44,232 nucleotides of DNA. Source: Lampropedia puyangensis. GTDB lineage: Bacteria > Pseudomonadota > Gammaproteobacteria > Burkholderiales > Burkholderiaceae_C. This document shows, piece by piece, positions 22,660 to 44,232 of the stretch. The stretch covers positions 1 through 44,232 of the forward strand of contig NZ_STFG01000026.1 in NCBI RefSeq assembly GCF_004833285.1, in the 5' to 3' direction. The position numbers and the translations under genes were made by a program. The notes under the pieces are model-generated. The model did no database searches and was not told the DNA's origin. It saw only the letters and a program-made list of their open reading frames with translations. Each line of letters begins with the position of its first letter. Within the stretch, counting starts at the first letter, position 1.

Positions 22660-22710
22660 AACCGCTAACGGCTTTAGCTACTACCGATTGTCACGAGAGC
22701 AATCACTGAA

Positions 22711-24507: not shown

Positions 24508-24509
24508 GA

Positions 24510-26204: not shown

Positions 26205-28957
26205 TGACAACACGCATCAAAAACGCCGTGACTGGACGCCTTTCCCTGCGTGCGCCGCAAGCAGAGTCCTTAGCCAAACTGGTGCAAGCCATTGATGCCG
26301 CACCCAGTCTGCTTGAGCATGGAGACAGGGATATTGAAGCTATTCTGAATACGCTCAAAGCAGAATTCCCAACGCTGCAGGCGTTTGAGCGTGACTTCCC
26401 TTCGCTGTGCTTTGCATTGGCAACCGGCGTGGGCAAAACCCGCCTGATGGGGGCTTTTGTGGCCTATCTGCATCTACAACATGGCATCAACAACTTCTTT
26501 GTGCTGGCGCCCAACCTGACCATCTACAACAAGCTGATTGATGACTTTACGCCGAACACGCCGAAGTACGTGTTCAAAGGCATTGCCGAATTTGCTCAGC
26601 AAGCACCGCTGATCATCACAGGCGACAACTACGATCAAAGCGGTGCAGCGGTCAACGATCTGCAAGACGGCTTTGAGCAGGATGTGCGTATCAATATCTT
26701 CAATATTTCGAAGATCAATTCAGAAGTGCGCGGCGGCAAAGAACCGCGCATTAAGCGCATGCGCGAAGTGCTGGGCGACAGCTACTTCAACCATCTAGCC
26801 AACCTGCCCGATTTGGTGTTGCTGATGGATGAATCGCACCGCTACCGTGCCAGTGCAGGCATCCGCGCCATCAATGAGTTGCAGCCACTGTTTGGCTTAG
26901 AACTGACTGCGACACCCTTTACTGAATCGAATAAAGGGCCGGTGCCATTCCAAAACGTGGTGATGGATTACCCCTTGGCCCGTGCACTGGAAGATGGTTT
27001 TGTGAAAGACCCAGCCGTGGTCACACAGCGTAACTTCAAAGCGAGCGACCACACGCCTGAAGAGGTGGAAAAGATCAAGCTTGAAGATGGCATTCGTCTG
27101 CATGAGGAAACCAAGGTAGAGCTGATTACCTATGCACGCGACAACGGCGTTAAAACCGTCAAGCCCTTCATGCTGGTGATTGCGCGTGACACCACGCACG
27201 CATCGCAGTTGTTGGATCTGCTGCAATCGGAAAGCTTTTACGAAGGGCGCTACGCGGGCAAAGTGATTCAGGTGGATTCCAGTCAGACGGGCGAAAAAGA
27301 AGAAGAGATGATCCGCCGCTTGCTGGCAGTGGAAAGCGTGGATGAGCCCACCGAAATTGTGGTGCACGTCAACATGCTCAAAGAAGGCTGGGACGTGACC
27401 AACCTCTACACCATCGTGCCCCTGCGCGCCGCGAACGCACGCACCTTGATTGAGCAAAGCATTGGCCGTGGCTTGCGTTTACCGTATGGCAAACGCACAG
27501 GTGTTGAGCCAGTAGACCGCTTGAACATCGTGGCGCACGACCGCTTTCAGGAAGTAGTGGACGACGCCAACAAGGCCGATTCACCGATCAAGCTCAAGCA
27601 AGTCATCTTGGAGGCCCCAAGCCAAGAAGAAAAAAAGGTTAGTGTTACGGTTGAACCATCTATCAACGCGCAGTTGGGGTTGACACCATCTGCCGTTCAT
27701 AAAACAGACGCAGATGGAAATATCAATGTCGCAGACGCTGCCAACGTTGTGAAAGCGCCCTCACCAGTGTTCACTAACGAGGCAGATAAAAAGATTGCGC
27801 AAGCCACGTTGGCGGTTATTCGCTCTTTAAGCACCAAGGCCACTGAGTTGCCTCAAAGTGCTTCGCTGCAAACACCTGAGGCGCAGCAAAAAATCGTTAG
27901 TCAAGTCAAGGAAAAGCTAAAAGAAATTTCTGGCGATTTACTAACGGGAGTGGATGAACAGGCAGCGGTGCCTGATGTGGCGGCTGTTGTGGCCAAAACC
28001 ACTGAAATTGTGGTGCAAAAAACCATCGATATTCCGCGTATCACGGTGGTTCCAACAGGTGAAGTTAAAGCGGGCTTTCGTGCATTTGAGCTGAATACAA
28101 GTCAACTCAACCTCCAGCCGGGTTCACGGGAAATTGTGGGCCAGGTATTGCGCACCGGCGAACAATTCACCCTCGAATCTAAAGCAGGGTTGAAAGAAGC
28201 ACGACCTGAGGACTACATCGTCCACAGGTTAGTGGACTTCGATGATGTGGACTACTTCACCCAGGCGGACTTGCTTTATGAATTGGCGGGGCAGATGGTG
28301 ACCCACTTACGCTCCTACCTTCCAGAGGAAGACGTGGAAAACGTGCTGAACGGGCAACGTGCCACCATCGCCAAAGAAATTCACTCACAAATGAAGTTGC
28401 ACTTTTTCGAGGAATCTTCCGGTGAGTCTGAGGTGGTTGTTCATCAAGGGTTTACCCCACTCAAACCCTGTAACTACACAGCTGCAGCTGACAAGGCACC
28501 GCAGAACTATCGCCAAACTGTTCAAAACCTAAGCAAGATTAGAACCATGCTGTTTACTGGATTCAGTAAATGCCTCTATGAATTGCAGCGTTTTGACTCC
28601 GACACCGAGCGACGATTTGCTGTACTGCTTGAACGTGATGCATTGAAGTGGTTCAAACCCGCAAAAGGCCAGTTCCAGATCTATTACAAGCAGGGCAATG
28701 ACCATGCCGAATACATCCCAGATTTTGTTGTGGAGCTTGACGATGCGATCTACATGGCTGAAACCAAAGCCAGCGGGGATGTGAACTTACCCGAAGTGCA
28801 GGCGAAAGCCACCGCTGCAAGCCTATGGTGCAAACACGCAAGCGACTACACCAAGACGGTAGGCGGCAAGCCTTGGCATTACTTGCTGATCCCCCACGAT
28901 GATGTCGTTGAGTCGAATACCCTCAAATCGTTTTTGAAGTTTGAGAAACGGACTTAA
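26204..28957 (+). CDS. res: Type III restriction endonuclease subunit Res
   Basis: 917 residues. SF2 helicase motifs: ATGVGKT (about 73), DESHRY (about 208), LTATPF, and motif VI QSIGRGLRLPYG (about 417-428). The C-terminal endonuclease shows YIPDFVV (about 838) followed by MAETKA (about 851), a complete PD...(D/E)XK site. The length suits the family. With Mod it cleaves unmodified DNA after ATP-dependent communication between sites. Between about 470 and 560 there is a less conserved Ala/Lys/Gln-rich stretch. Start at the TAATG overlap with mod; the operon then continues across a structured 87-bp gap. Confidence 0.93.
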   Translation: MTTRIKNAVTGRLSLRAPQAESLAKLVQAIDAAPSLLEHGDRDIEAILNTLKAEFPTLQAFERDFPSLCFALATGVGKTRLMGAFVAYLHLQHGINNFFVLAPNLTIYNKLIDDFTPNTPKYVFKGIAEFAQQAPLIITGDNYDQSGAAVNDLQDGFEQDVRINIFNISKINSEVRGGKEPRIKRMREVLGDSYFNHLANLPDLVLLMDESHRYRASAGIRAINELQPLFGLELTATPFTESNKGPVPFQNVVMDYPLARALEDGFVKDPAVVTQRNFKASDHTPEEVEKIKLEDGIRLHEETKVELITYARDNGVKTVKPFMLVIARDTTHASQLLDLLQSESFYEGRYAGKVIQVDSSQTGEKEEEMIRRLLAVESVDEPTEIVVHVNMLKEGWDVTNLYTIVPLRAANARTLIEQSIGRGLRLPYGKRTGVEPVDRLNIVAHDRFQEVVDDANKADSPIKLKQVILEAPSQEEKKVSVTVEPSINAQLGLTPSAVHKTDADGNINVADAANVVKAPSPVFTNEADKKIAQATLAVIRSLSTKATELPQSASLQTPEAQQKIVSQVKEKLKEISGDLLTGVDEQAAVPDVAAVVAKTTEIVVQKTIDIPRITVVPTGEVKAGFRAFELNTSQLNLQPGSREIVGQVLRTGEQFTLESKAGLKEARPEDYIVHRLVDFDDVDYFTQADLLYELAGQMVTHLRSYLPEEDVENVLNGQRATIAKEIHSQMKLHFFEESSGESEVVVHQGFTPLKPCNYTAAADKAPQNYRQTVQNLSKIRTMLFTGFSKCLYELQRFDSDTERRFAVLLERDALKWFKPAKGQFQIYYKQGNDHAEYIPDFVVELDDAIYMAETKASGDVNLPEVQAKATAASLWCKHASDYTKTVGGKPWHYLLIPHDDVVESNTLKSFLKFEKRT

Positions 28958-31790: not shown

Positions 31791-32378
31791 TCACTCCCCA
31801 CATGGCTCGCCAAACATAAAGCTCATATTGATGCCGCGCTCAATATGCTGATTCAGCAAATCAAAAGCCTCAAACGAATGACTTCCGCCCTCTAAAGTGA
31901 TCAAAGCGGATTGCTCAAAAAAGTGCAATTGAGAAGGTTGATCAACCACCTCATCCCCCAGCTCAATCAGCGCTGTTTCAGGACCATCGCGCGAGCCAAT
32001 ACGCTGACCCACTTCTTGTTCCAATTGTTCATACTGCGCTTGGAATGCGGCAGGCATACTGCGCTCGCCACCATTGAACAATGTCAGCGATGGCTTGAAT
32101 GATGGATTTAGCAAGATGGAAGAAAACCCTCGCAAACGCAATTGCGCCAAGCGAGTAAAAAAGCACCCCAAGCTGTGCGCCACCACTACCGACTCCAATT
32201 GATCTAACTGGCGCACACGTTCGACCAATCGGTTCAGCACCAAGTAAGGCGGTTCAGCTCGGTAGTCGACCTCAAAAATGTTTACGGTATAGCGATCAGT
32301 CAAGGTCTGCAAATGCAACCACTTGCTCGACTGCACGCCGGACATGAATCCGTGGACAAAAAGAATTTCAGGCTTCAT
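31791..32378 (-). CDS. YqiA/YcfP-like alpha/beta-hydrolase
   Basis: 195 residues, close to the family's 190 or so. The ATG at 32378 has AAAAAGGAG just upstream; an in-frame ATG 33 bases earlier does not. LFVHGFMSG is the oxyanion-hole strand, AHSLGC carries the nucleophile serine, LIELGDEVVD the aspartate and EGGSHSF the histidine, all in the order and wording of YqiA (GDEVLDYR, EGGDHAF in that protein). The strand ILLNPSFKP also matches. It should be a soluble esterase of unknown substrate. It is divergent from the PLD-helicase operon, and the WYL-type operator lies 34-58 bp upstream of its start, so it may belong to the same regulon. Confidence 0.85.
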   Translation of the reverse strand: MKPEILFVHGFMSGVQSSKWLHLQTLTDRYTVNIFEVDYRAEPPYLVLNRLVERVRQLDQLESVVVAHSLGCFFTRLAQLRLRGFSSILLNPSFKPSLTLFNGGERSMPAAFQAQYEQLEQEVGQRIGSRDGPETALIELGDEVVDQPSQLHFFEQSALITLEGGSHSFEAFDLLNQHIERGINMSFMFGEPCGE

Positions 32379-32411
32379 GCGCACTCCTTTTTGAGTCTGA
32401 TCATAGAACAA

Positions 32412-32436
32412 GCTTATGACAGCTTGTGTCGTATAA
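32412..32436. promoter_or_regulatory. Candidate WYL operator, site 1
   Basis: On the minus strand it reads TTATACGACACA, A, GCTGTCATAAGC: an inverted repeat with core CGAC-N7-GTC(A). The 10-mer TACGACACAA is identical to one in site 3 (41897-41906). It lies between the divergent esterase gene and the PLD-helicase operon, nearer the esterase. Confidence 0.55.
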
Positions 32437-32571
32437 AAAGCTCGTACAACTATTCTTTTCAGGTGCGCATCAAAACGGCAACGACTCGTGCATTTACGCT
32501 ATTTCGCAGACAAAATTGACTTTAATACCCATTAAGATTCCATCACAAGTAGCTACATAAGGAAACGATTT

Positions 32572-33843
32572 ATGCGTAATGAGCGATGGGGGTTGCTAGG
32601 TCCTGAATCATTGGAGAGTGAACGACGCACTCGGACACTACAGCTCTCTGCTGCTACGCGTTACTTCAACGATCGCGCAGTCCCCGGCTTAGGGGGTGTT
32701 TGGTTTGGTAGGCAGCTGTTATTGGCGACCCTTGGTGTCGTTGTCGCTGAGAGGGCGGCAGAAAAAGGCAAGAAGTACAGCAATATTAAAGTGGCCAATG
32801 CAATAGAAGCTTTGGCGTGTACGCTGGCTTATAAAAACAACCAATGGAAATCAGATAGCCGACTCGCAGGGCGCAGAAAGCTGCAAAATAAATCGGAAGA
32901 CTTGGCATTTGAAAAAGTATCCGAAGACAGTCACTACGTCACTCAGCCCATGCGCATGGCTACCGTGCAGGCACTGCCAGCCCTGGGTTTTGTTTCTCCA
33001 CAGGGCCAACGTTTCAATGATTTTGAGCCTACTGATGAGGCATGTGAATTCATTTCTGCTTCCTGCTCGGCTCTTAGGCCAAAGAATAAAGAAGTTACTC
33101 TTCACTTGGCTGAGTGGGTATGCGGGGGCGTAGATATTAGCGAGAACACATTGCGGAATGCGATCTCACCCTGCTTGCCATTGCCTGAAAAGGCACGAAG
33201 AAACTTGCGCAATCACTTAGCAGGCCCTAACGGCACACAAGAAGACGTCAAACGCCGACAAAATCTACTGGCGTGGATGGACGCACTCAGAGCCAATCCT
33301 TCAGCGGCCAAGCTAAAGCCTGCCGTTCTTGATGAGACGCATTGGCACGACATTCAAGCCGGATCGCTATTTTTCAAAGCCCAAACGCTTGCCCTTGAAG
33401 CGTTGGATGCCGTAGAGCTCGGTATGGGGCCGAAATGCTCATACGTTGATGCAACGCAAAAAGCACAAAAGCAACTACAAAAACTGCAACAAGCTGCACA
33501 AGCATTTCTTGCGTCTGGTAATCAGCATTCAGATGCAAAAAGATTCTGTGAAGAATGCACAAATCCAAACCCTACAGCAGTATTGAAAGCTTTGGTTCAA
33601 CGCGATGGCACCGGTTTGCGCGAACGAGAAGACGACATTATTCGAGGTCCGGCATTCAGCGGAAAACTTCCTCCCCCACCCACTGATGAGGATGCGCCTC
33701 CATCAGAGAGCAATGCCACGGACATTCCAATCCCAGAAGGGGTTTCGTTCAGGTTGCGGAATTTTTATCTTTTGAACCTCGACTTGCATGGTGAGTTGGA
33801 TGCATGGTTACAGCGTCATAAAGAATTGGAAAATGCAGCATGA
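32572..33843 (+). CDS. Unknown first gene of the PLD-helicase operon
   Basis: 423 residues, not recognised. AAGGA precedes the ATG at 32572. Helical regions dominate: GLGGVWFGRQLLLATLGVVVAERAAE-type hydrophobic start (about 38-62), a Lys-rich centre, and a Gln/Lys-rich coiled segment QKAQKQLQKLQQAAQAF at about 300-320. Residues about 365-395 are Pro/Glu-rich and probably unstructured (KLPPPPTDEDAPPSE). The last part (RLRNFYLLNLDLHGELDAWLQ) looks folded. Its ATGA overlap with the next gene indicates coupled translation, so it is likely an obligate partner of the PLD and helicase proteins. Confidence 0.75.
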   Translation: MRNERWGLLGPESLESERRTRTLQLSAATRYFNDRAVPGLGGVWFGRQLLLATLGVVVAERAAEKGKKYSNIKVANAIEALACTLAYKNNQWKSDSRLAGRRKLQNKSEDLAFEKVSEDSHYVTQPMRMATVQALPALGFVSPQGQRFNDFEPTDEACEFISASCSALRPKNKEVTLHLAEWVCGGVDISENTLRNAISPCLPLPEKARRNLRNHLAGPNGTQEDVKRRQNLLAWMDALRANPSAAKLKPAVLDETHWHDIQAGSLFFKAQTLALEALDAVELGMGPKCSYVDATQKAQKQLQKLQQAAQAFLASGNQHSDAKRFCEECTNPNPTAVLKALVQRDGTGLREREDDIIRGPAFSGKLPPPPTDEDAPPSESNATDIPIPEGVSFRLRNFYLLNLDLHGELDAWLQRHKELENAA

Positions 33844-35858
33844 GTAATAAAAAAACGTACTTTCTATCGTTGCTGGATTACTTTGATGCCCCCGATGGAT
33901 TCAAAGGCCAATTTGGCTGGGTCGTGGGTTTCTCTGCTGACCGTTTTTTCATGAACGAGGCAGCAGAACGCTTTACTGGAAACACCAAGCCAGAACGCGC
34001 TTACAGCGGTGAGATGGCTATCGGTTTATTTTTGGATCCTAGTAACCCGACATTGAACTTAGAGGAAGTGCCCGGTGTCGCGCACCTGCCCATTAAAGGA
34101 AAAGCAGGGTTGGAGAGCAAACGTTGCCGACTCATTCACGCCAAAGTGGCGTTGCTGGGCTTTCGCGATGAAAAGCAGCCAAACGTTTGGTGCCTGCGGC
34201 TGGTGGTGGCAACTGGTAACTGGACTCGGCAAACGTTGGAGGAAAGCCTCGATCTTGCTTGGAGCATTGACGTTACCAGCGGCGATTTGACCAATGCAGA
34301 AGAGAAAACCAAACAGGCCTGCGCAGATCTGTTCGCAGCAGCGCAGCTTTTTGAATGGTTGCGTAGTGGTGCAGACGGCTTGTTCAATACCGATCTGTTG
34401 CATCACTCAGCCGAAAAACAAAAAGCTGTGGATAGTTGGCTTAGCCTCTGCCAAAAAGCGGCAAGAGGATACAAGCCTCGCTTCTTAGACAACCGAAGCC
34501 AATCACTTCTCTCCCAATTGCCCAAACACGTCGCTCGATTGAGTGATGTCACAAGAAACTATCTCGCAATGGGCTCAGGCTTTTTTGAGGGGGGAACACA
34601 CTGCTCAGTACCTCAAGAGATTCTGACGGCTTTGCGAAATAAAAATCTTCTGACCCAATCTGCAGAAGTTGATATCTTCGTCAATGCGTCAGGGTGCCAA
34701 TCCATCGCTGGATCCAAAGAATTACTAAAGGATGCGAATGTCAAAATTCGTCCACCAAAAACATCTCAAGCTGTATTTGGCAAGAAAAAAGAAAAACAAA
34801 ATGACCGAGGTTTGCATGCCAAGTTCCTTTTTAGCGCCAATTATCAAAAGAACTCAAACGCTTGCAACAAGGGATGGGTGTATTTAGGCTCGGGCAACTT
34901 AACACGCCATGGGTTTACGCAACAGATGGATGCCCACCGTGGCAACCTTGAGGCTGGGGTCATCTTTGAACTGCATGATGCATATTGGTATAAGGAACCC
35001 AGCATCAACGCTCAGCAAGTCATCACAAACCTGCTGCCGATTCAATGGGATGAGGAATGCAAACCTGAAGAATTGGCAGCTGGTGACGCTTGGGAGCCAA
35101 CTGACCCTCAGCACTTTGCCCCCCCTGTGCCTTGGCTGGTTTGGTACCAGACAGATGAGCGGGTTGAATTGCGTTTGCCAGATTCCGTCAATGATGTCGC
35201 AAACTTTACGATTCTGGATGATGCTGGTGCACATATGCCAATGATGAACAATGCATTCCATTGGCGAGGGGAGTGGCGTCAACAAGTCCTCTGTGAATGG
35301 ACAGATTCAGGAATTGTCCATACCGCTTACATTCCGATTTTAGATACGGATGGCCGCTTAGCGGCCACACCCTACTCAGTCATTCATGACCTCAATGACC
35401 TGCTTCGAGAGTTAAGCGCATTCCCTAACCCTCCAGATATTGAAGATGAAGATGAAGACGAGGAAACAGTCCCACCAGAGAAAAAACCCCCAAGGGATGC
35501 GAAAGGCAGCGGTTTGACTGGTGTAGGCACATCCAACCGTTATGCAGTACGCCAAATGATGGAGCTCCTCGAACGCATCGCCTCTCAACAGACCCAAGTG
35601 GCCGAACACGATTGGCGCACCTGGTGCACTCGGCTAGAGCAGACGCTGGTGCGTGCAAACAAAGTCGATGCAGTGATCTATTTTGTCGAGCATCTCAAAT
35701 TAAACCCTCTTGCCCCCTTGCGCGATCCAGCTTTCAGACCAGATTTTGCCGTTCAAGTGGATTCAGATGCTTATAGGCAATATAAGGATGCTTTAGACAA
35801 AATCGAACAACAATGGGTTGGGGGCGCAGACTTGAAGCCACTGGGAGGTGAGCAATGA
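33840..35858 (+). CDS. TDP1-like phospholipase-D superfamily nuclease
   Basis: 672 residues with two catalytic half-sites. The first is IHAKVALLGF (His100, Lys102) with VVATGNWT (Asn127). The second is GLHAKFLFSA (His326, Lys328) with LGSGNLTRHG (Asn353). H-x-K followed about 25 residues later by an Asn is the HKN layout of tyrosyl-DNA phosphodiesterase 1 and of related PLD nucleases; phospholipases usually have Asp in that place. A C-terminal acidic region (about 540-555, DEDEDEETVPPEK) leads to a helical domain. It probably cuts or processes DNA ends or RNA. The gene overlaps both neighbours by ATGA, so the three products are made together. PLD plus helicase occurs in Mokosh and DISARM, but the partners differ here. 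Confidence 0.8.
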   Translation: MSNKKTYFLSLLDYFDAPDGFKGQFGWVVGFSADRFFMNEAAERFTGNTKPERAYSGEMAIGLFLDPSNPTLNLEEVPGVAHLPIKGKAGLESKRCRLIHAKVALLGFRDEKQPNVWCLRLVVATGNWTRQTLEESLDLAWSIDVTSGDLTNAEEKTKQACADLFAAAQLFEWLRSGADGLFNTDLLHHSAEKQKAVDSWLSLCQKAARGYKPRFLDNRSQSLLSQLPKHVARLSDVTRNYLAMGSGFFEGGTHCSVPQEILTALRNKNLLTQSAEVDIFVNASGCQSIAGSKELLKDANVKIRPPKTSQAVFGKKKEKQNDRGLHAKFLFSANYQKNSNACNKGWVYLGSGNLTRHGFTQQMDAHRGNLEAGVIFELHDAYWYKEPSINAQQVITNLLPIQWDEECKPEELAAGDAWEPTDPQHFAPPVPWLVWYQTDERVELRLPDSVNDVANFTILDDAGAHMPMMNNAFHWRGEWRQQVLCEWTDSGIVHTAYIPILDTDGRLAATPYSVIHDLNDLLRELSAFPNPPDIEDEDEDEETVPPEKKPPRDAKGSGLTGVGTSNRYAVRQMMELLERIASQQTQVAEHDWRTWCTRLEQTLVRANKVDAVIYFVEHLKLNPLAPLRDPAFRPDFAVQVDSDAYRQYKDALDKIEQQWVGGADLKPLGGEQ

Positions 35859-38482
35859 ACAAAAAATTCAAAGGCTGGGATGCGGTTGCATCTCAACTTC
35901 ACTCTATTGCCAATGGGGAAACCATCGAACTCAACGCTGGCCAACGTGCAAGCCTGAAGGCTCTTGCAGAGAGGCTGCCGCAGAACGGCGTCATCATTGC
36001 GGATGAGGTTGGCATGGGTAAAACCCGTATCGCCACAGCACTGACGAACGCGGTGATTCATTGCGAAGGGCGTGTGGCAATCCTGACCCCTCCTGGGCTG
36101 GGCTTTCAATGGCGCGACGAATTACGCAAAGCCCATGTGCCTGAGAAAACACAGCTTCTGCGCAGTTTGTGGCAATTCTTAAAAAAATGGGAAAACGACA
36201 TTCGGCCAGAAGGCCACGCCACTTGGCTTGAGGATGATGTTGTACTAATTTCACACGCCTTCTGTAATTGGCGCCTAGGGGAAAATAGCGCTTACTGGCG
36301 GTGGGCGTTACTGCCTACGCTGTATGCACATTGGAGAAAACAGCATAGTGGTCGCTATCCGAGAAATTTTTATGAAAAGAAGGAGCTACGTAACAAATGG
36401 GAGGAGAATGCTGCAAAATTGGCGATGAATGCTGCAGAAAACATAGTTCAAATAATCAACAACACCCCAACTAAACACCCTTTGCGTATGCGAATGGAGG
36501 AGCTGCAAGACATAACGCCTTGGCCTGCAGCGCTGGAGGGGAGTGAGTATGCGAAAAATAGCAACCTGCGTCACGCTCTGGAGCAAGCGGTAGGGCTTGG
36601 TCTCGGAGCATTTGATCTGGTCATTGTGGATGAGGCACACAAAAGCCGCGGTGAAGACAGCGGCCTCAACAGGTTACTCAATACCATCATCTTGCCTTCA
36701 GCCCATGCACGTCGCTTGCTCATGACAGCCACGCCGGTTGAGCTGCATGCAGGGCAATGGAAGCAATCACTGGCTCGTGCTGGCATCACCGATGACAATG
36801 CCACGACAGCGATCGAACGCTACAGCGAAGCGGTGACACGCATTCAAAAAATGCCCAGTGATGCGTCTGCGCTGACCGCCTTCCGTCATGCAGCAGCGGA
36901 GTATCAAACAGCGCTATCCACCTATGTGTTGCGCAGAGATAAACGCGAAGTGGAAGCAGTCAAGCAGTACATGCAACACAGCAACAATGGCAAGGATGAT
37001 TACCGTAAGGTTGAGCAGCTAGGCATATCGGCATCTCATTGCTCACCTGAATGGCGACAGGCCATCTGTGCGGCTGAAGCACTCTCTTTTGTTGCTAGAG
37101 GTTCGCAAGATCAAAGCGCCAAACGCTTGCGATTGACCATCGGCAATGGCCATGGCATTTCAGCCATCTTGGATGAACATTTAAAAGGAGAGGGAGATCA
37201 GTTATTAAACAAGCCGCAAGAAGAGGAGAACTCCGCAAAGTCGAGCACCATAGAATCGTTTGACATCAAAAAGCAACAACGCATTGATTTCTGGAAGCGC
37301 ACGCTCACACTCCCTTTTCAATCCACCGATAGTGTGCATGGCGATGAAAATCGTTTATTTGCACATCCAGCCATTCAAAAGGCCGTAGAAAAAATTGAAG
37401 CGGTTTGCGATAGTGGCGAAAAAGTGCTGGTTTTTGGTCGCTTCACGCGCCCTATGCAAGCATTGGTACGCTTACTCAATGCAAGACAAATGCTTCGTAG
37501 TCTTAGAGAAGGGAGTCTGTGGCCACAGGCCTCCGTACATCAGGCAGAAGTAGCTGCTGTGCAGTTTGCCTTACACGAGCAGGAGTCGACTGACACGATT
37601 GAAGACATCAATCTGAAATTAGAAAAACAGTACCGCACACTAGAAAAAAGGCGTGAAGAGTTCCGCAATCATTTTCTTGAGGTGATTGAAAACAATTGGG
37701 GAGCTGCACACTATAAGAACGATTCTTCTACAGGGGCATTGTTTCAGGCACTCAAGTCTGCTCCATCAGCAGATATTGCCATGGTGGCACGCGCCATTCA
37801 AGAATACTTGCCAACACCCGACTGGAAAGTTGCCGAAAAAATCACCCATGCATTTGGTGTACTGCTCAGTGCACTTGCAGATACGGAGTGGGAAGAAGCT
37901 GATGATGACGAAGGTGATGGTGAGTTAGATTCCGTTCGTGTTCAAGAGAAGCTCGCATTACGAATCGAGCGCTTGCGTGACGAATACAGCCGCACTGAAA
38001 GCAGTTTTGCACGATTGATGAACGGCAATACACAACCGTCAACACGCAGATTGCTTCAACAAGCATTCAACCGTCCGCATAGCAACCTAAAGGTGCTAGT
38101 CGCCCAATCAGTAGTCGGGCGTGAAGGCTTGAATTTACATGAAGCCTGCCGCACGGTGGTGCTGCTCCATGCGGAGTGGAATCCCGGGGTGGTAGAGCAA
38201 CAAATTGGCCGTGTCGATCGCATTAACAGCCTCTGGGAAAAACGGCTTAACAGTGCTCTTGCAGACAAAAAGTCAGGAATGGACTTACCGAAAATAGAAG
38301 TCTACCCCATTGTTTTTGAAGGTACCTACGATGAGGCGAACTGGGAGGTTTTGATGCAACGCTGGGACGATCTACGAGCACAGTTGCATGGCGTTGTCAT
38401 TACCCCCACTATCGCGGAAAAAACCGATGATGAAACAGTCCGCCTCATCAATGAGACTGCACCTCGGTTCTCACTCCATTGA
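35855..38482 (+). CDS. SNF2/DEAD-type SF2 helicase
   Basis: 875 residues. Walker A IIADEVGMGKT (about 46-56), motif Ia ILTPPGLGFQWRDEL, motif II VDEAH (about 258-262) and motif III MTATPVELHAG are followed by the second domain with VLVFGRFTRPMQAL, VAQSVVGREGLNLHEA and motif VI QIGRVDR (about 782-788). An inserted segment of more than 200 residues with acidic and Gln/Glu-rich helices lies between the two domains. It should be an ATP-driven nucleic-acid translocase. It begins within the stop of the PLD gene (ATGA). A perfect 9-bp hairpin follows its end. Confidence 0.9.
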   Translation: MNKKFKGWDAVASQLHSIANGETIELNAGQRASLKALAERLPQNGVIIADEVGMGKTRIATALTNAVIHCEGRVAILTPPGLGFQWRDELRKAHVPEKTQLLRSLWQFLKKWENDIRPEGHATWLEDDVVLISHAFCNWRLGENSAYWRWALLPTLYAHWRKQHSGRYPRNFYEKKELRNKWEENAAKLAMNAAENIVQIINNTPTKHPLRMRMEELQDITPWPAALEGSEYAKNSNLRHALEQAVGLGLGAFDLVIVDEAHKSRGEDSGLNRLLNTIILPSAHARRLLMTATPVELHAGQWKQSLARAGITDDNATTAIERYSEAVTRIQKMPSDASALTAFRHAAAEYQTALSTYVLRRDKREVEAVKQYMQHSNNGKDDYRKVEQLGISASHCSPEWRQAICAAEALSFVARGSQDQSAKRLRLTIGNGHGISAILDEHLKGEGDQLLNKPQEEENSAKSSTIESFDIKKQQRIDFWKRTLTLPFQSTDSVHGDENRLFAHPAIQKAVEKIEAVCDSGEKVLVFGRFTRPMQALVRLLNARQMLRSLREGSLWPQASVHQAEVAAVQFALHEQESTDTIEDINLKLEKQYRTLEKRREEFRNHFLEVIENNWGAAHYKNDSSTGALFQALKSAPSADIAMVARAIQEYLPTPDWKVAEKITHAFGVLLSALADTEWEEADDDEGDGELDSVRVQEKLALRIERLRDEYSRTESSFARLMNGNTQPSTRRLLQQAFNRPHSNLKVLVAQSVVGREGLNLHEACRTVVLLHAEWNPGVVEQQIGRVDRINSLWEKRLNSALADKKSGMDLPKIEVYPIVFEGTYDEANWEVLMQRWDDLRAQLHGVVITPTIAEKTDDETVRLINETAPRFSLH

Positions 38483-38513
38483 TAGAAATCAAGTTTCTGA
38501 TTCGTTAAGCCTT

Positions 38514-38542
38514 GGTCCTAGGAAAAATCGTACCCTAGGACC
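38514..38542. terminator. Hairpin between convergent genes
   Basis: GGTCCTAGG and CCTAGGACC pair perfectly around an 11-base loop. It lies between the 3' ends of the helicase gene (+) and the degenerate Sir2 gene (-), so it may act for both. No T-run follows on either strand, so the call is tentative. Confidence 0.45.
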
Positions 38543-38591
38543 CCGCGACTCACTGATGCTGGCAAAGAGCGATTAGAAGACTTCAAGCAAG

Positions 38592-39668
38592 TCAAACCTC
38601 GCGATTCATAGCAGAGCGCAAGGACGCTAAAGCCTGATCAAATGGCACCATCACACTAGTCCCATCGAATTGATTTTCTTCCTCGCTATCCATATACATG
38701 TGAATGCATTGCCTGCCTCTGGTTCTCGCTACAAATTGATGCAGTCGTGTTTCATGTGCTTGAACCCCTAACAAAATAAAGAGCGGCGAACGTGAGCGAG
38801 CTAACCAGTCCTCTAGAAGGTTACGCTGCCTGTTGCGTCTAGAGGTATTCCAATACTGATCATGCGGTAGCAAACAATTAGGGCGAAGAGAGGCATTACA
38901 GTATGGGCACTGGGGTGGCTCTGGAAGGCATGCCCCCAATGCCGCAATGGCATGACTGCGAACACTAAATGAAGGCCAGATCACTTCTCGGCTGTCACTA
39001 CAGTTAGCTGCACATTGAAGTCTGTGGATGGTGCCGTTTCGTTCGTACACACGTGCCAAAGGGAAACCGGCTTTTTGGAAGCGCCCATCCACCAATGAGG
39101 TGTAAATAAAAGCTCCTTGTGGGCGACTATCGCACCATTGCTTGATAACGGCGACGTCCGCATTGAGCTTGGTTGCACGGCTGTGCGCTAAGTAGGAGCG
39201 ATAGGCAGCAAAAGCCCAATGTGGCCTGCTATGAAATGCATCAGCGGTAAACGCCGGATCATTCCAAGCCGAACTATGCTTGGCTAACGAAGCGGAGGTT
39301 GAATGTACGGTAAGTTCAGGCTCACCCCCTTGTTCATCTAAGTGAGCGATCATCCCCTGACCGGCAACAATGACTAAGCATTGTGCTTCCTGCATCCACG
39401 CTTGTGCGATAGATAACCGCTGTGCAAGCGGTCTAGCATCCCTTTGAGGTAACCTAAGTTCTGCTTTAACCAGCGCATCTCCTGTTGAGATATTGAAATC
39501 CAAAATATCTCCTAGCATGGCACCAAATAAGGTCGTTGCTTGTACACGATCAATACCAAGCTGATGTTCGATACATGCGATGTTTGGTTGCGGATGCTGT
39601 AAAACAACTTTTTTTGCCTCGGTGTACAAACTGCTTTTTCGCAACAAATCCTGAGTAGCCAAAGACAT
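38592..39668 (-). CDS. Degenerate Sir2 protein with FtsK-gamma-like N-terminus
   Basis: 358 residues. Residues 13-58 (LYTEAKKVVLQHPQ, HQLGIDRVQATTLFGAM) have the pattern of the FtsK gamma winged helix (LYDEA..VL....S...LQRRL.IGYNRAARL...ME). From about 95 the protein follows the Sir2 gene next to it. Residues 187-219 mirror that protein's catalytic region, but the catalytic His is Asn211 and the NAD-contacting Asn is Leu192. The GAGIGVDSG loop is reduced to GQGMIAHLDEQ (103-113). Both zinc CxxC-type pairs remain (Cys219/223 and CPYC). It is probably an inactive sensor, DNA-binding or regulatory partner of Sir2. It lies 246 bp after that gene, in the same direction. Confidence 0.75.
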   Translation of the reverse strand: MSLATQDLLRKSSLYTEAKKVVLQHPQPNIACIEHQLGIDRVQATTLFGAMLGDILDFNISTGDALVKAELRLPQRDARPLAQRLSIAQAWMQEAQCLVIVAGQGMIAHLDEQGGEPELTVHSTSASLAKHSSAWNDPAFTADAFHSRPHWAFAAYRSYLAHSRATKLNADVAVIKQWCDSRPQGAFIYTSLVDGRFQKAGFPLARVYERNGTIHRLQCAANCSDSREVIWPSFSVRSHAIAALGACLPEPPQCPYCNASLRPNCLLPHDQYWNTSRRNRQRNLLEDWLARSRSPLFILLGVQAHETRLHQFVARTRGRQCIHMYMDSEEENQFDGTSVMVPFDQALASLRSAMNREV

Positions 39669-39914
39669 CGCGTATCCAATCTATTGCAAGGGTATAAATA
39701 AAAAAATTGTGCCAAACAGCGAACTGCTCAGCACTTTTCTGTGCGGTAACATACTTGCCCACTTTTGAGTGACAACGCCTCTGGAGATACTCATCCATCA
39801 ACTCAAACTATCAATGAGCATTGCGTACTTGCCAACGTTCGACCCGCGCAGTCAATGCATTAAATGACCTAAGGTGAAAGCATCAACCGTTATCACCTTT
39901 CAATACTCAAGCTA

Positions 39915-40763
39915 TTAGCTTCCGCGCAGCATCACAGCATCTATTGCCTCCAACGCTCGGCGCGCAGGCCATACGATCTCAATGCTGTCACCACTCTCCA
40001 TATTAGGCTCATTGAGGTTAATACGAATCAGCTGGCTGCCAGCCTCCACCATGCGTTTACTAAACGAGCGAACAGCTGGGACAGCCGTTCCTGCACCCAC
40101 TTCAATCACCAATGGCGCTTGGACTTTCACTATCCAATCCAGTAAGTTCTTGCGTTGCGCACGGCTGTGACTGCCGTTCCAGCTCCAGTCGTTGAACATC
40201 AAAATATTCGGGCGTGCGATACCGCCACAATTCGGGCATTGCGGCAGGCCATTGAGTAGAAGGCATTGCTGCATGTCTACTTCTGGTTTGAGATCTTCGG
40301 CCGACCACAGCTCATCCTTACAAGGCCGCTGGCACTGTAGCCGGTGAATGGAGCCATGGCATTCAAAAACTTGGCTTTCAGAAAAGCCTGCTTTCTGAAA
40401 ATGCCCATCGACATTGCTGGTGTGCACAAAGCCACCATGGGTTGCCGCATCACACCACTTTTTCAGAATGTCAAAGCCAGTATGCGGCTGCAATTTGCGA
40501 TACATATTCAGCCGGTGCCCGTAGAACCCCCAAGCCAGCGCAGGCTTGGCATCAAAATTTTGTGGTGCGGCTATATCCTGAAACGACATCCGTCCTTGCG
40601 CTAAAGCGGGATAGGTTTTCCAAAAGCCATTCTCACTGCGAAAGTCTGGCATGCCTGAATCCACACCAATGCCAGCGCCTGCGGCAATCACAATTGCATC
40701 GGCTTGCGAAACTAAAGCGGCTGCTTGTTGTATGCGAGTTTTAATCAGTGCATCTTTGTCCAT
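39915..40763 (-). CDS. Sir2-family NAD-dependent protein
   Basis: 282 residues. NAD-binding motif GAGIGVDSGMPDFR (29-42), HTSNVDGHF (114-122) with Asn117 and Asp119, catalytic His136 in ECHGS, zinc ligands Cys144/Cys148 and CPNC, and EVGAGTAVP in the last Rossmann strand are all present, so it should be active. Sirtuins remove acyl groups from proteins using NAD; Sir2 domains in defence systems instead break down NAD. Both remain possible. An AAGGA ribosome site precedes the ATG at 40763. It is divergent from the WYL regulator, with a shared near-palindrome between them. Confidence 0.92.
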   Translation of the reverse strand: MDKDALIKTRIQQAAALVSQADAIVIAAGAGIGVDSGMPDFRSENGFWKTYPALAQGRMSFQDIAAPQNFDAKPALAWGFYGHRLNMYRKLQPHTGFDILKKWCDAATHGGFVHTSNVDGHFQKAGFSESQVFECHGSIHRLQCQRPCKDELWSAEDLKPEVDMQQCLLLNGLPQCPNCGGIARPNILMFNDWSWNGSHSRAQRKNLLDWIVKVQAPLVIEVGAGTAVPAVRSFSKRMVEAGSQLIRINLNEPNMESGDSIEIVWPARRALEAIDAVMLRGS

Positions 40764-40830
40764 TCGGTTTCCTTAGTAATGAGAGTCACTATGCACCTCA
40801 ACTGGCATGCATGTACGCATTGTTACAGGA

Positions 40831-40855
40831 CAATACGACATAATACGTCGCACTG
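40831..40855. promoter_or_regulatory. Candidate WYL operator, site 2
   Basis: CAATACGACATA, A, TACGTCGCACTG: imperfect 12-bp arms around one base, with a perfect CGAC-N7-GTCG core. It lies between divergent Sir2 and WYL genes, about 58-68 bp from each start. A 20-bp core matches site 3 at 16 positions by direct comparison. Confidence 0.65.
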
Positions 40856-40912
40856 ATTTCTCATTTTCGTGAATAACGGACTTCTGCCTTTCTTACGCCC
40901 ATCATTTCAGCC

Positions 40913-41884
40913 ATGAAATCCAAACAACGTACAGACAGCTTCGAAACCGCATTGATGATTCTGGCGCTACTTGAGCGCATTCCTGCCAGCCCCAAAAAAA
41001 TCACTTCTAAAAAACTGCAAGAAAAATTGCAGGCAGCCGGTTTTGATCGTGATCTTCGAAGTGTGCAACGGTTGTTAGATTCTTTGTCTCAACACTTTGA
41101 TATTGAGCGCGATGACAGAAGCAAACCGTATGGCTACAGCTGGAACAAAGATGCCAAAGGATTCAGTTGGCCAGGCTTGAATGAGCAAGAGTCCCTGCTA
41201 TTGCGCCTTGCGGAGCAACATTTGCGCAACTTGTTGCCGACACGCCTGATGAAGTCGATGGATGGTTTTTTTAAACAAGCGCAAGAGAGGCTTGCGCCGC
41301 ATGGCGATGCGCAGCTGGCTCGGCAATGGTTGGGAAAAGTGCACGTCATCAGTGCAAGGCAACCATTATTGCCACCAGAAATTCGTGCAGGCATTCTGGA
41401 TGCCGTCAGCAATGCGCTCTATGAGAACAAATGGCTAGAAGTGGATTACGAGAACCAGCGCAGCGTGCGATCCAAAGTGCGCGTGATGCCGCTGGGGTTG
41501 GTGCAGCAAGAACAATGCTTGTATTTGGTCTGCCGCTACGATGGCTATGACAACGAAAGGCATTTGGCCTTGCATCGTATGCACAAAGCGACTGTTGAGC
41601 CATGGCCTTTTGAACGCCCGCGCTTTGACCTTAAAAAATATGGCGCGGATGGCCATTTCGGTTTTGGCGAAGGCAAGCTAGTGCGCCTGCATTTTCGTAT
41701 TGCCAAAGATGCCGGATTCCACTTACTTGAAAGCAAACTCAGCAAAGACCAACAAGTTCAAGAGGAAGATGATTGCTACGCCATTACCGCCACGCTGGTG
41801 GATAGTGCCATGTTGCAATGGTGGCTCAACGGTTTTGGGGAGGCGGTTTGGGACGTCAGAAGAACACCGGTCAAGACAACATAA
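40913..41884 (+). CDS. WYL-domain transcriptional regulator
   Basis: 323 residues. An N-terminal winged helix (TSKKLQEKLQAAGFDRDLRSVQRLLDSL, about 30-60) is followed by a WYL domain (KWLEVDYENQRS, KVRVMPLGLVQQEQCLYLVCRY, HLALHRM; about 165-225) and a C-terminal WCX-like segment ending in GFGEAVWDV. This is the architecture of BrxR/CapW-type repressors of defence genes. No ribosome site is evident before the ATG. Near-palindromes occur upstream of its start and downstream of its stop, before the AAA gene; it likely represses itself, Sir2 and the AAA gene, and perhaps the esterase and PLD operon. Confidence 0.9.
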   Translation: MKSKQRTDSFETALMILALLERIPASPKKITSKKLQEKLQAAGFDRDLRSVQRLLDSLSQHFDIERDDRSKPYGYSWNKDAKGFSWPGLNEQESLLLRLAEQHLRNLLPTRLMKSMDGFFKQAQERLAPHGDAQLARQWLGKVHVISARQPLLPPEIRAGILDAVSNALYENKWLEVDYENQRSVRSKVRVMPLGLVQQEQCLYLVCRYDGYDNERHLALHRMHKATVEPWPFERPRFDLKKYGADGHFGFGEGKLVRLHFRIAKDAGFHLLESKLSKDQQVQEEDDCYAITATLVDSAMLQWWLNGFGEAVWDVRRTPVKTT

Positions 41885-41893
41885 AACAATAAG

Positions 41894-41918
41894 CTGTACG
41901 ACACAAATAGTCGCACGA
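41894..41918. promoter_or_regulatory. Candidate WYL operator, site 3
   Basis: CTGTACGACACA, A, ATAGTCGCACGA: perfect CGAC-N7-GTCG core, 10 bp after the WYL stop codon and 48 bp before the AAA start. It shares TACGACA and GTCGCAC, at the same spacing, with site 2. Confidence 0.65.
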
Positions 41919-41965
41919 GGAATTAACAATACGTCCATTCCCAATCAATTCTAAGAGGTTGTTTG

Positions 41966-44056
41966 ATGAGACGGTTTCCTGTGAGCAAAGTGTCGTGTGA
42001 GTTGTCAAAACCAGTTCTTCTGTGGATTCTTCGTGCCCTTGTGCACCTAGGGGCTCACAAAGAAATCTGCACAAAGCACGGTATTAGTCATGATGAGATG
42101 GCCATAGCCATCGGTCTGGAAAAATGGGTCGACCGAGATGACGACTACAGTCAAGCAGCCGCCATTGCGGATCTCAAAAAACTCTTAAAGCAAACCAGCA
42201 ATAGCGCTATAAATGAAACGGACTTCCCAGCCATATTGAATGCCAACGTTCAAAAACTGGCCAGTATTACTGGCTTGGGTAATGTGGATTGTCTTGTCTT
42301 GAAGTTTGTCATTTGGTCCAAGAGCGAGCCATTGCTCGAGTCTGCGCTCGATTGGCTTGGCGACATCACATCCTTGCGACTTATCCATGCGTTATCCATT
42401 GTTTTAGATATTTCTATTGAAGAGCTACGCTCCACCATCCAACCGGATGCTGCTTTGATTCGATCGGGTCTGATTCGAATCGACAGACATGGCATTGATA
42501 ACTTCAGTAGAAAACTACGCTTAATTTCAGACCGGTTTGCAGATGCGATGCTGTCATTTGACAGCGACCCGATAGACCTGCTCAAAGATTGCGTAGAGAG
42601 AAGTGCTCCTCCCACCCTCAGCATCAACCACTACACACACATTGAAAAACATACTCAGCTTCTACTGCCTTACCTCAAGCACAGTGTGCAGCACGCCCGA
42701 AAGGGGGTGAACATTCTGATTCATGGCAAGCCTGGTACGGGAAAAACAGAGCTCACCAGAGTGTTGGGGCAAACGTTGAACTGCCATGTGTTTGACGTCA
42801 GCAGTCAGCGTGCAAATGACGCAGACGTGGTGCCTATTGATGCCAATGAACGCCTTGCGGCTTTGCGTATGGCGCAGTCTTTAGCTGCTCACCAACGGGC
42901 ATTGATTGTTTTTGACGAGGTGGAGGATGTATTTAACGATGGCGGCATGCTTTTCGGAACGAAAAGTACCGCACAAACGCACAAGGGATGGATTAACCGC
43001 GCCCTTGAAGAAAACCCCATCCCTACCTTATGGTTGTCCAACGCGATAGAGGGAATGGATCCTGCCTTCATACGTCGCTTCGATATGGTGATCGAAGTCC
43101 CCATGCTCAATCTCGTCCAACGTACTGATCTCTTAAATGAGAAGTGCGGTGACTTGCTGAATCCAGCGCAACTGAAGACTTTGGCCAAAGTGGATTACCT
43201 TGCTCCGGCCATCGTTGCCAAAACAGCTTCTGTCATTCGCTGCATACAAGAAGAAAATCAAGAGACGAATCCCCCGTCAGCGAATACCTTCAACTTTCTG
43301 GTTAACAACACTCTGCGTGCCCAGGGTCATCGCCCAATTCATGCCAACACCACACTGCCAGAGGTGTATGCGACCGAGTCTGTCAATGCCAATCATGACC
43401 TGGAAAAACTTGCCTCAGGCCTTGCGAATCAACCTTCTGCTCGGATTTGTCTCTACGGACCTCCCGGAACTGGAAAAACCGCTTATGGGCATTGGTTGGC
43501 ACAGCAACTGGGAATGCCGCTACACCTCAAAAAAGCCTCTGATTTAATGTCCATGTGGGTAGGGGGAAATGAAAAAAACATAGCCCAAGCCTTTCAGGCA
43601 GCAGAAGCAGAAGGTGCATTGCTCTTAATTGATGAAGTCGATAGTTTTCTGCGCGAGCGAGAAAACGGCACCCGCAGTTGGGAGCAAACCATGGTCAATG
43701 AAATGCTGGTGCAAATGGAAAATTTTCAAGGCCTGTTTATGGCTTCAACCAATTTAATGCATGGCTTAGATTCGGCTTCCTTGCGACGCTTTGATCTCAA
43801 AATTCAGTTCAATTACCTCAAGCCACAACAAGCCATTGCACTGCTTGAGAAATACTGCCTGCAATTGCACTTAGGCGTATGCCATACATCGCAATCAAAA
43901 CGCTTGGAAAAACTCACCTCTTTAACCCCTGGTGACTTTGCACTGATCGCGCGTCAACATCGATTCCACCCCTTGTTATCTGCAGAGGACTTTGTGATTG
44001 CCTTGAAAGCTGAGTCTGCCCTAAAAAAGCAGCCAAACTCCATTGGTTTTGTCTGA
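41966..44056 (+). CDS. Tandem AAA+ ATPase
   Basis: 696 residues from the ATG at 41966, with AAGAGG upstream (a TTG directly before it is in frame). About 240 helical residues precede two AAA domains. The first has GKPGTGKTE (about 254-262), IVFDEVED (about 313-320) and RRFDM. The second has GPPGTGKTA (about 498-506), LLIDEVDS (about 553-560), NLMHGLDSASLRRFD. Both thus carry Walker A, Walker B and arginine-finger-like residues. The second is close to the FtsH/Cdc48 type, where hexamers remodel proteins. No partner protease is visible. An operator-like repeat lies just upstream, so it probably belongs to the WYL-controlled set. Nothing else of the family is fixed. Confidence 0.88.
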   Translation: MRRFPVSKVSCELSKPVLLWILRALVHLGAHKEICTKHGISHDEMAIAIGLEKWVDRDDDYSQAAAIADLKKLLKQTSNSAINETDFPAILNANVQKLASITGLGNVDCLVLKFVIWSKSEPLLESALDWLGDITSLRLIHALSIVLDISIEELRSTIQPDAALIRSGLIRIDRHGIDNFSRKLRLISDRFADAMLSFDSDPIDLLKDCVERSAPPTLSINHYTHIEKHTQLLLPYLKHSVQHARKGVNILIHGKPGTGKTELTRVLGQTLNCHVFDVSSQRANDADVVPIDANERLAALRMAQSLAAHQRALIVFDEVEDVFNDGGMLFGTKSTAQTHKGWINRALEENPIPTLWLSNAIEGMDPAFIRRFDMVIEVPMLNLVQRTDLLNEKCGDLLNPAQLKTLAKVDYLAPAIVAKTASVIRCIQEENQETNPPSANTFNFLVNNTLRAQGHRPIHANTTLPEVYATESVNANHDLEKLASGLANQPSARICLYGPPGTGKTAYGHWLAQQLGMPLHLKKASDLMSMWVGGNEKNIAQAFQAAEAEGALLLIDEVDSFLRERENGTRSWEQTMVNEMLVQMENFQGLFMASTNLMHGLDSASLRRFDLKIQFNYLKPQQAIALLEKYCLQLHLGVCHTSQSKRLEKLTSLTPGDFALIARQHRFHPLLSAEDFVIALKAESALKKQPNSIGFV

Positions 44057-44060
44057 AGAA

Positions 44061-44168
44061 ATGAACGGCAAGAACTACCCCAACGCTCAAACTTCCATTA
44101 ATAATCCACAGCCAACTGTGGTGGCTGACATTAGCGCTACCCGCATTTCTTCGCGCTTAACCAATTGA
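44061..44168 (+). CDS. Possible 35-aa small protein
   Basis: ATG 4 bp after the AAA stop, with GAAGAA directly before it; it encodes a polar peptide ending RISSRLTN. Nothing identifies it and it may be chance. It contains a CCACAG/CTGTGG hairpin (44106-44121). Low confidence. Confidence 0.2.
   Translation: MNGKNYPNAQTSINNPQPTVVADISATRISSRLTN
44106..44121. terminator. Short hairpin downstream of AAA gene
   Basis: CCACAG, CCAA loop, CTGTGG. No T-run follows, so it may not be a true terminator. Confidence 0.3.
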
Positions 44169-44232
44169 CGTCATCCTGGTGATTCCTAATAACTTGGATT
44201 AGCGTCTGACCAGAGGTTCTTCTTGGGATGCA

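What the first reader, a model, noticed from the sequence alone, without database searches (positions are those of the whole stretch)
32412..41918. One near-palindrome repeated at three promoters links a WYL regulator to a multi-gene set
CGAC-N7-GTCG occurs with a perfect core at 40831-40855 (Sir2/WYL intergenic) and 41894-41918 (before the AAA ATPase). These two share 16 of 20 central bases. A related copy at 32412-32436 (esterase/PLD operon intergenic) carries the same 10-mer, TACGACACAA. All three sites are in intergenic DNA, two flank the WYL gene, and WYL proteins such as BrxR and CapW repress defence genes from inverted repeats. The inference is a single regulon spanning about 12 kb.
Basis: partly seen in the sequence, partly recalled or inferred. 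Interest (0 to 1): 0.82.

Follow-up and report, generated by a model that had tools for sequence, protein, structure and literature searches.

The report
DriD-like switch for defence genes
A bacterial defence island carries its own switch protein and three matching DNA landing sites that look built to turn genes on, probably when single-stranded DNA appears during damage or infection, rather than to keep them off.

Summary
Three places in the window lie within one mismatch of TACGAC-N7-GTCGTA, and they are the three named; all are intergenic. The own genome has four others (3 of 4 in ORFs). The box belongs to this WYL family: in 35 loci (window plus 34 relatives) half-sites give 50 boxes with a 7-bp spacer and 0-4 with any other spacer from 3 to 11. 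A -10-like hexamer lies 8-9 nt beyond 32 of the 50 boxes (34 composites; permuted half-sites at most 2). Five of five hold-out plasmids repeat it.

This is the published operator and promoter layout of DriD, the ssDNA-activated WYL activator of Caulobacter (ATACGAC-N7-GTCGTAT, over -35). DriD is also the closest solved structure, with full-length profile homology. So activation is more likely than the repression proposed by analogy to BrxR/CapW, though a repressor is not excluded. Orientation corrects the targets: Sir2, the AAA ATPase and a UPF0227 hydrolase, not the WYL gene and not the PLD/helicase operon. Each of these three target types has a box-driven counterpart elsewhere. In two plasmids AAA, WYL and the PLD/helicase genes are contiguous. 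ssDNA sensing and activation are inferred, not shown.

The parts
40834..40852 (.). DriD-type box 1, Sir2/WYL intergenic
40819..40824 (-). -10-like hexamer AACAAT, 9 nt from box 1, directed at Sir2a (39915-40763)
41897..41915 (.). DriD-type box 2, before the AAA ATPase
41925..41930 (+). -10-like hexamer AACAAT, 9 nt from box 2, directed at AAA ATPase
32415..32433 (.). DriD-type box 3, UPF0227 hydrolase / PLD-operon intergenic (one half-site GTCATA)
32400..32405 (-). -10-like hexamer TATGAT, 9 nt from box 3, directed at UPF0227 hydrolase
40913..41884 (+). WYL regulator, DriD-like
   Evidence: Pfam WYL; full-length profile match to DriD; Foldseek top hit DriD
41966..44056 (+). AAA ATPase with two AAA modules (IetA-like C-terminal module); predicted target
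   Evidence: start ATG 41966
39915..40763 (-). Sir2a, sirtuin with intact active-site motifs (motifs recalled); predicted target
38592..39668 (-). Sir2b, sirtuin relative with degenerate active site; same strand as Sir2a, but the 246-nt gap holds promoter-like and terminator-like matches, so co-transcription is uncertain
31791..32378 (-). UPF0227 alpha/beta hydrolase; predicted target
   Evidence: start re-placed at ATG 32378
32572..33843 (+). first gene of PLD/helicase triple; next to WYL in L080 and L125, no box points at it here or there
33840..35858 (+). PLD-like protein, weak ZacB match
35855..38482 (+). SNF2/ResIII helicase, matches PDC-M27C, BrxH, DrmD and ZacC models

Best explanation
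The WYL protein (40913-41884) is a DriD-type transcription activator. A dimer binds TRCGAC-N7-GTCGYA boxes that take the place of the -35 element in promoters with a fair -10, and recruits RNA polymerase. By analogy with DriD it is held inactive until its WYL domains bind single-stranded DNA made by damage, replication arrest or phage attack. It then turns on, from three boxes, Sir2a (minus strand, perhaps Sir2b too), the AAA ATPase (plus strand, perhaps with genes beyond the contig end) and the UPF0227 hydrolase (minus strand). Shown here by sequence: the box, its conservation with this WYL family, its fixed phase to the -10, and full-length kinship with DriD. Inferred: binding, activation, ssDNA as signal, and a defence function of the targets.
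For: Spacer test: in 35 loci (window included) 50 boxes with N7 and 0-4 with any other spacer from 3 to 11. Phase test: 34 box + (-10) composites at offset 8-9, on 32 distinct boxes, at most 4 at other offset pairs; 50 permuted half-sites give mean 0.16, max 2. Hold-out: 5 of 5 plasmid loci, two of them near-copies. 25 of the 50 boxes are intergenic by crude gene calls against mean 0.28, max 1, for 60 permuted half-sites, in loci 91% covered by ORFs. In 40 promoters a -35 hexamer at 17 bp matches TTGACA at 0-2 of 6, and the sigma-70 scan reports no promoter at the three boxes. DriD: consensus ATACGAC(X)7GTCGTAT, site over -35 at a constant distance from -10, poor -35s, activator. The driD box fires the divergent operon, not driD, as box 1 points at Sir2 and not WYL. 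A DriD orthologue locus (89% identical over the fragment searched) has TGCGACAGAAACGGTCGTA with a divergent GACAAT 7 nt away. Profile-profile E 8e-11 over residues 7-321, with R49-x3-R53 of the recognition helix on R-T-A-E-R of DriD. Best PDB structures: DriD E 4e-15, PafBC 2e-10, CapW 1e-7, BrxR 1e-7. Recurrent targets with co-directed composite: Sir2 in 6 of 8 loci with a Sir2 hit (L075 at 2 mismatches), AAA in 13 of 18 (L024, L068 at 2 mismatches); UPF0227 in L065.
Against: No binding or expression data. A box over -35 could also serve a repressor: the Acinetobacter BrxR site overlaps -35 too. With an 18-bp spacer, 16 of 40 promoters match TTGACA at 3 of 6. The Arg four residues before the conserved Pro in the DriD WYL domain is not kept in this family, so the ligand may differ. 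The structure model has pTM 0.48 and TM-scores to DriD near 0.31, so domain packing is not established. 6 of 35 loci have no composite hit even at 2 mismatches, and 16 of 40 loci, the window among them, have none at the start of the WYL operon itself. Strict boxes also occur in 58 of 275 family genomes without the WYL gene (my count of rows), and the backward control pattern hits many of the 299 genomes too (not tallied). One permuted half-site of 60 reached 24 hits in all, though at most 1 intergenic. The -10 criterion was set after looking at the alignment. Box 2 is also listed as a terminator-like hairpin on the minus strand.
Confidence: 0.72

Rival explanations
1. The WYL protein is a BrxR/CapW-type repressor: it covers the -35 region of these promoters and leaves when a ligand binds.
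For: WYL repressors of defence genes are known and bind inverted repeats. The Acinetobacter BrxR site overlaps the -35 of its promoter, and its 10-bp half-sites are 5 nt apart, a geometry close to TGCGACA-N5-TGTCGCA. Fold kinship to BrxR and CapW is significant.
Against: BrxR and CapW have Foldseek E-values about seven orders of magnitude weaker than DriD, and BrxR is at E 0.15 in the profile search against 7e-6 for DriD. -35 matches are 0-2 of 6 at 17 bp in 40 promoters, which suggests that they need help from an activator. One fixed phase to the -10 is expected of an activator that touches polymerase, less so of a repressor; the E. fergusonii BrxR site lies downstream of its promoter.
Confidence: 0.2
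2. The boxes belong to another regulator of the host, for instance one of the two other WYL proteins in the genome, and the neighbouring WYL gene is a passenger.
For: The genome holds two more WYL genes, at C1:296695 and C23:52102. Boxes also occur in relatives without this WYL.
Against: The loci were picked by this WYL alone, and boxes are concentrated around it in Beta- and Gammaproteobacteria and on plasmids. No box within 1 mismatch lies in the 3-kb stretches around the other two WYL genes. Family genomes with the WYL have strict boxes more often, 14 of 24 against 58 of 275, P 2e-4.
Confidence: 0.06
3. Chance palindromes in intergenic DNA.
For: Three sites are few, and control patterns of equal form are as common in the own genome.
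Against: Enrichment, spacer specificity, phase to -10 and hold-out in relatives.
Confidence: 0.02

Closest known systems
DriD regulon of Caulobacter crescentus (PMC12340889, a preprint: passages and section 11 seen)
   Same: Operator CGAC-N7-GTCG with T(A/G) outer bases; box over -35 at a fixed distance from -10; poor -35; full-length protein homology; box beside the regulator gene facing the divergent operon.
   Different: DriD is a Caulobacter regulator of didA, bapE, recJ and dnaG; here the regulator is sporadic (24 of 299 family genomes), also on plasmids, in a defence island, 21-24% identical, with Sir2, AAA, DUF2779 and UPF0227 targets. Consensus of 40 promoters is TGCGACACAwTTTGTCGCA.
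BrxR and CapW repressors (PMC9122601, PMC9122589: passages; PMC9122588: listing only)
   Same: WYL proteins with wHTH tied to defence systems; BrxR binds inverted repeats near its own gene, in Acinetobacter over the -35.
   Different: Lower structural and profile similarity; act as repressors. Their operator letters were not compared.
PafBC (PMC11804915: abstract opening and passages)
   Same: WYL activator of a DNA damage response, ssDNA effector.
   Different: Heterodimer; does not bind promoter DNA without polymerase; weaker match.
Azaca-like PLD/helicase systems (PADLOC ZacB, ZacC models; the name Azaca is recalled)
   Same: PLD protein and helicase in order after an unknown first gene.
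   Different: Matches are weak and the helicase fits PDC-M27C, BrxH and DrmD models at least as well.

Membership tests
DriD-type WYL activators | wHTH, helical linker, WYL and WCX domains in one chain, homologous over full length | tested here: met
   hhalign 306 columns, E 8e-11; Foldseek top hits; domain packing not reliable
DriD-type WYL activators | Operator ATACGAC-N7-GTCGTAT or close variant | tested here: met
DriD-type WYL activators | Operator overlaps -35 at constant distance from -10 | tested here: met
   by sequence only:
DriD-type WYL activators | Arginines of the DNA-binding domain reading the guanines | tested here: inconclusive
   R49 and R53 align with DriD R-T-A-E-R; which arginines make the contacts was not read (paper not held)
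DriD-type WYL activators | ssDNA binds the WYL domain and triggers DNA binding | not testable with these tools
   R216 and R222 align with DriD arginines, the Arg before the conserved Pro is not kept
DriD-type WYL activators | Activates transcription with RNA polymerase | not testable with these tools
   only indirect: poor -35s
BrxR/CapW repressors | Closest relatives by structure and profile | tested here: not met
BrxR/CapW repressors | Represses target promoters | not testable with these tools
   no expression data
Azaca | ZacA, ZacB and ZacC all matched | tested here: inconclusive
   ZacB 7e-10 and ZacC 2e-15 weak, no family hit for the first gene

The most novel reading that the evidence does not exclude
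Defence islands of Beta- and Gammaproteobacteria carry a portable, SOS-independent ssDNA response. One DriD-type activator and its boxes switch on not only nuclease-like, AAA and sirtuin genes but also island copies of replication and division genes (FtsZ-like in L018 and L070; boxes beside DnaB and DnaA-like genes in L021). An infection or damage signal would thus arm defence and halt the cell together.
Probability: 0.3. Interest if true: 0.8.

Novelty: new variant of a known kind. Interest (0 to 1): 0.62.

Why it matters
It gives a defence island a predicted trigger (ssDNA), a predicted sign (activation) and a promoter code (box, 8-9 nt, -10) that can be tested at once and used to find further genes of such regulons. 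It would extend DriD from a Caulobacter pathway to a mobile regulator class, in contrast with the repressor logic known for BrxR. In the seven paper searches made no listed title or abstract opening speaks of this box in defence islands; only listings and the named passages were seen, and most subscription papers are not in that library.

Tried and rejected
Box 1 as activator site of WYL itself: no phased -10 on that side, so not claimed; how WYL is transcribed is open. Box 3 as operator of the PLD/helicase operon: no phased -10 on that side either, and none of 3 loci with the first gene of that triple has one facing it. Repressor by analogy: kept as rival. phmmer of the single WYL protein against PDB found nothing at E 1, so the profile of 33 sequences was used. 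E. coli megablast: no match. Strict DriD consensus in 398 phylum genomes: 7 with a match, 5 of 7 in ORFs, no use. Outgroup WYL loci at 31-34% identity (4 fetched of the 21 plasmid records below 40%): a perfect box with phased -10 in 1 of 4, 2-mismatch hits in 2 more. Phage record MT835507 holds an AAA-WYL pair; boxes there are few and partly weak. In one search the hydrolase query was out of frame; repeated correctly. Hold-out plasmids were 5 of the 6 remaining close records (H2-H5, H7; H6 not fetched; H1 is locus L065 of the discovery set). Rows dropped: L027 (WYL reading frame with a stop) was left out of alignment A1, as were L020 (same contig as L039/L064), L040 and L054, and L056, L057, L058, L060 (33-38% identity); L064 was dropped from counts as a copy of L020, except, where it has no box; L031 (same contig as L024) was not used.

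Full report
Observation. TACGAC-N7-GTCGTA with at most two mismatches occurs three times in the window, each with one, and these are the three. In the whole own genome (3.97 Mb) there are seven places with at most one mismatch, three of them in this 44-kb contig; three of the other four lie in ORFs and the fourth between the 3' ends of convergent ORFs. Backward control patterns are as frequent or more so in this genome, so the case rests on relatives. The looser core CGAC-N7-GTCG also hits inside the ORF at 32726 and misses the third site's GTCA. The hydrolase start is better placed at ATG 32378 than at the listed TTG 32411.

Conservation. WYL orthologues were collected from genome contigs (16 loci), from 299 genomes of the same family (24 genomes at E 1e-40, hence sporadic) and from plasmids (28 records). 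The host genome is in the same family as Diaphorobacter, since G018:C2 has the length and match coordinates of plasmid record NZ_CP049906.1. In 36 loci (538 kb; the window and 35 relatives, one of these a duplicate) 50 boxes TRCGAC-N7-GTCGYA with at most one mismatch were found, 25 of them intergenic by crude gene calls, though ORFs cover 91% of the DNA. Sixty permuted half-sites gave a mean of 5.3 (max 24) in all and 0.28 (max 1) intergenic. Only spacer 7 is enriched: 50 against 0 to 4 for spacers 3-6 and 8-11.

Promoter phase. Listing boxes with their flanks showed a -10-like hexamer just beyond the box. With a criterion fixed after that look (A2, T6, at least 4 of 6 to TATAAT), both orientations of all 50 boxes were tested: 21 and 13 hits at offsets 8 and 9, at most 3 at any other offset from 0 to 39; the largest count at any offset in 1000 shuffles was 8. 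The composite count is 34 (32 distinct boxes) at mismatch 1, in 21 of 35 loci, and 49 at mismatch 2, in 29 of 35; 50 permuted half-sites give mean 0.16, max 2 at mismatch 1. Hold-out: five plasmid loci not used before each have a composite just before the WYL operon; two of the five are near-copies. The box centre falls at -30/-31. Hexamers at the -35 position with a 17-bp spacer match TTGACA at 0, 1, 2 of 6 in 16, 21, 3 of 40 promoters; with 18 bp, 16 of 40 match at 3.

Targets in the window. Box 1 has TAACAAT on the Sir2 side and nothing phased on the WYL side; box 2 has TAACAAT on the AAA side; box 3 has TATGAT on the hydrolase side and nothing phased on the PLD-operon side. Each target class recurs with its own box elsewhere: Sir2 in 6 of 8 loci with a Sir2 hit (window, L063, L066, L069, L071 and, with two mismatches, L075; not L030, L078); AAA in 13 of 18 (L024 and L068 with two mismatches; not L025, L073, L075, L078, L080); a composite directly before DUF2779 in 7 of 21; UPF0227 in L065, the only other hit of the hydrolase query. 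At the start of the WYL operon a composite stands in 16 of 40 loci at mismatch 1 and 6 more at mismatch 2; 2 are cut by contig ends and 16, the window among them, have none. In L124 the order is AAA, DUF2779, WYL, hypothetical, PLD, helicase, and in L125 AAA, WYL and the three homologues of 32572-38482. So the PLD/helicase triple is a partner of the WYL gene in some relatives, although in this window no box points at it.

Mechanism. The operator and its placement equal those published for DriD: consensus ATACGAC(X)7GTCGTAT, site over a poor -35 at constant distance from -10, transcription activation with the housekeeping polymerase, ssDNA as effector (PMC12340889, passages and section 11). The box next to driD activates the divergent operon and not driD, the same layout as box 1. 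As a control, a DriD orthologue locus (L129, 89% identical over the fragment searched) has TGCGACAGAAACGGTCGTA before the gene with GACAAT 7 nt away on the divergent side. By eye, 8 of 20 DriD-homologue loci have a box within one mismatch near the gene start, and 5 of those 8 show a divergent -10-like hexamer at 7-9 nt, two of the five being near-copies; the other 12 have none near the start. The window family and DriD align over 306 columns, and DriD entries lead both the profile search and the fold search. The model is fair locally (pLDDT 79.7) but not in domain packing (pTM 0.48).

What is not shown. No step of binding, ssDNA sensing or activation has been measured. Two WYL-domain arginines align with DriD (R216, R222) and one does not. 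Strict boxes are found in 58 of 275 family genomes that lack this WYL against 14 of 24 that have it (my count of rows), so single boxes in GC-rich genomes are weak evidence. Loci L028-L030 have the box behind the WYL gene, facing a small gene with a weak SHOCT match (L028 tested). The Acinetobacter BrxR site also overlaps -35. A repressor is therefore kept at 0.20. Whether Sir2b shares the Sir2a transcript is open: the gap between them holds promoter-like and terminator-like matches.

Verdict. By sequence, a DriD-type regulon in a mobile defence island: known regulator class, new setting, corrected targets and probably the opposite sign to that proposed.

Noticed in passing
window 38592-39668 and 39915-40763 (-): Tandem sirtuins: Sir2a keeps GAGIGVDSGMPDFR, TSNVDG and ECHGS; Sir2b has lost the matching residues, so an active/inactive pair is likely (motif meaning recalled).
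   Followed up: partly
L018:1114-2187 (-), L070:4432-5460 (+), L076:5727-6845 (-): FtsZ-like genes beside WYL loci; the first two have a box with phased -10 facing them, the third a box without one.
   Followed up: partly
L021:1685, 3133, 4099, 4422, 10804: Five boxes in one locus, next to DnaB helicase, a DnaA/Hda-like gene, DUF2779 and AAA genes; the boxes at 1685 and 3133 have no phased -10 by the criterion.
   Followed up: partly
L016:3592-4440, L076:4813-5736: Histone-deacetylase-family proteins in WYL loci, as if Sir2 and HDAC enzymes replaced each other.
   Followed up: no
L063:4220-5416, L071:6596-7654, L065:4603-5706: Weak FtsK-gamma domain matches (below Pfam cut-off), in two cases in a Sir2 protein.
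   Followed up: no
window 19699-28957: SNF2 helicase close to DrmD, AIPR/AbiU-like protein and a type III restriction-modification pair; no box within 2 mismatches there.
   Followed up: no
L152 (Pseudomonas aeruginosa plasmid): A distant WYL gene followed by three dynamin-family genes.
   Followed up: no
L153 (MT835507.1): A phage record holds an AAA-WYL pair at 40% and 28% identity, with a 1-mismatch box and, by eye, a phased -10 at L153:9679.
   Followed up: partly
window 44056-44232: The contig ends just after AAA, so the DUF2779 partner seen in relatives cannot be checked here.
   Followed up: no
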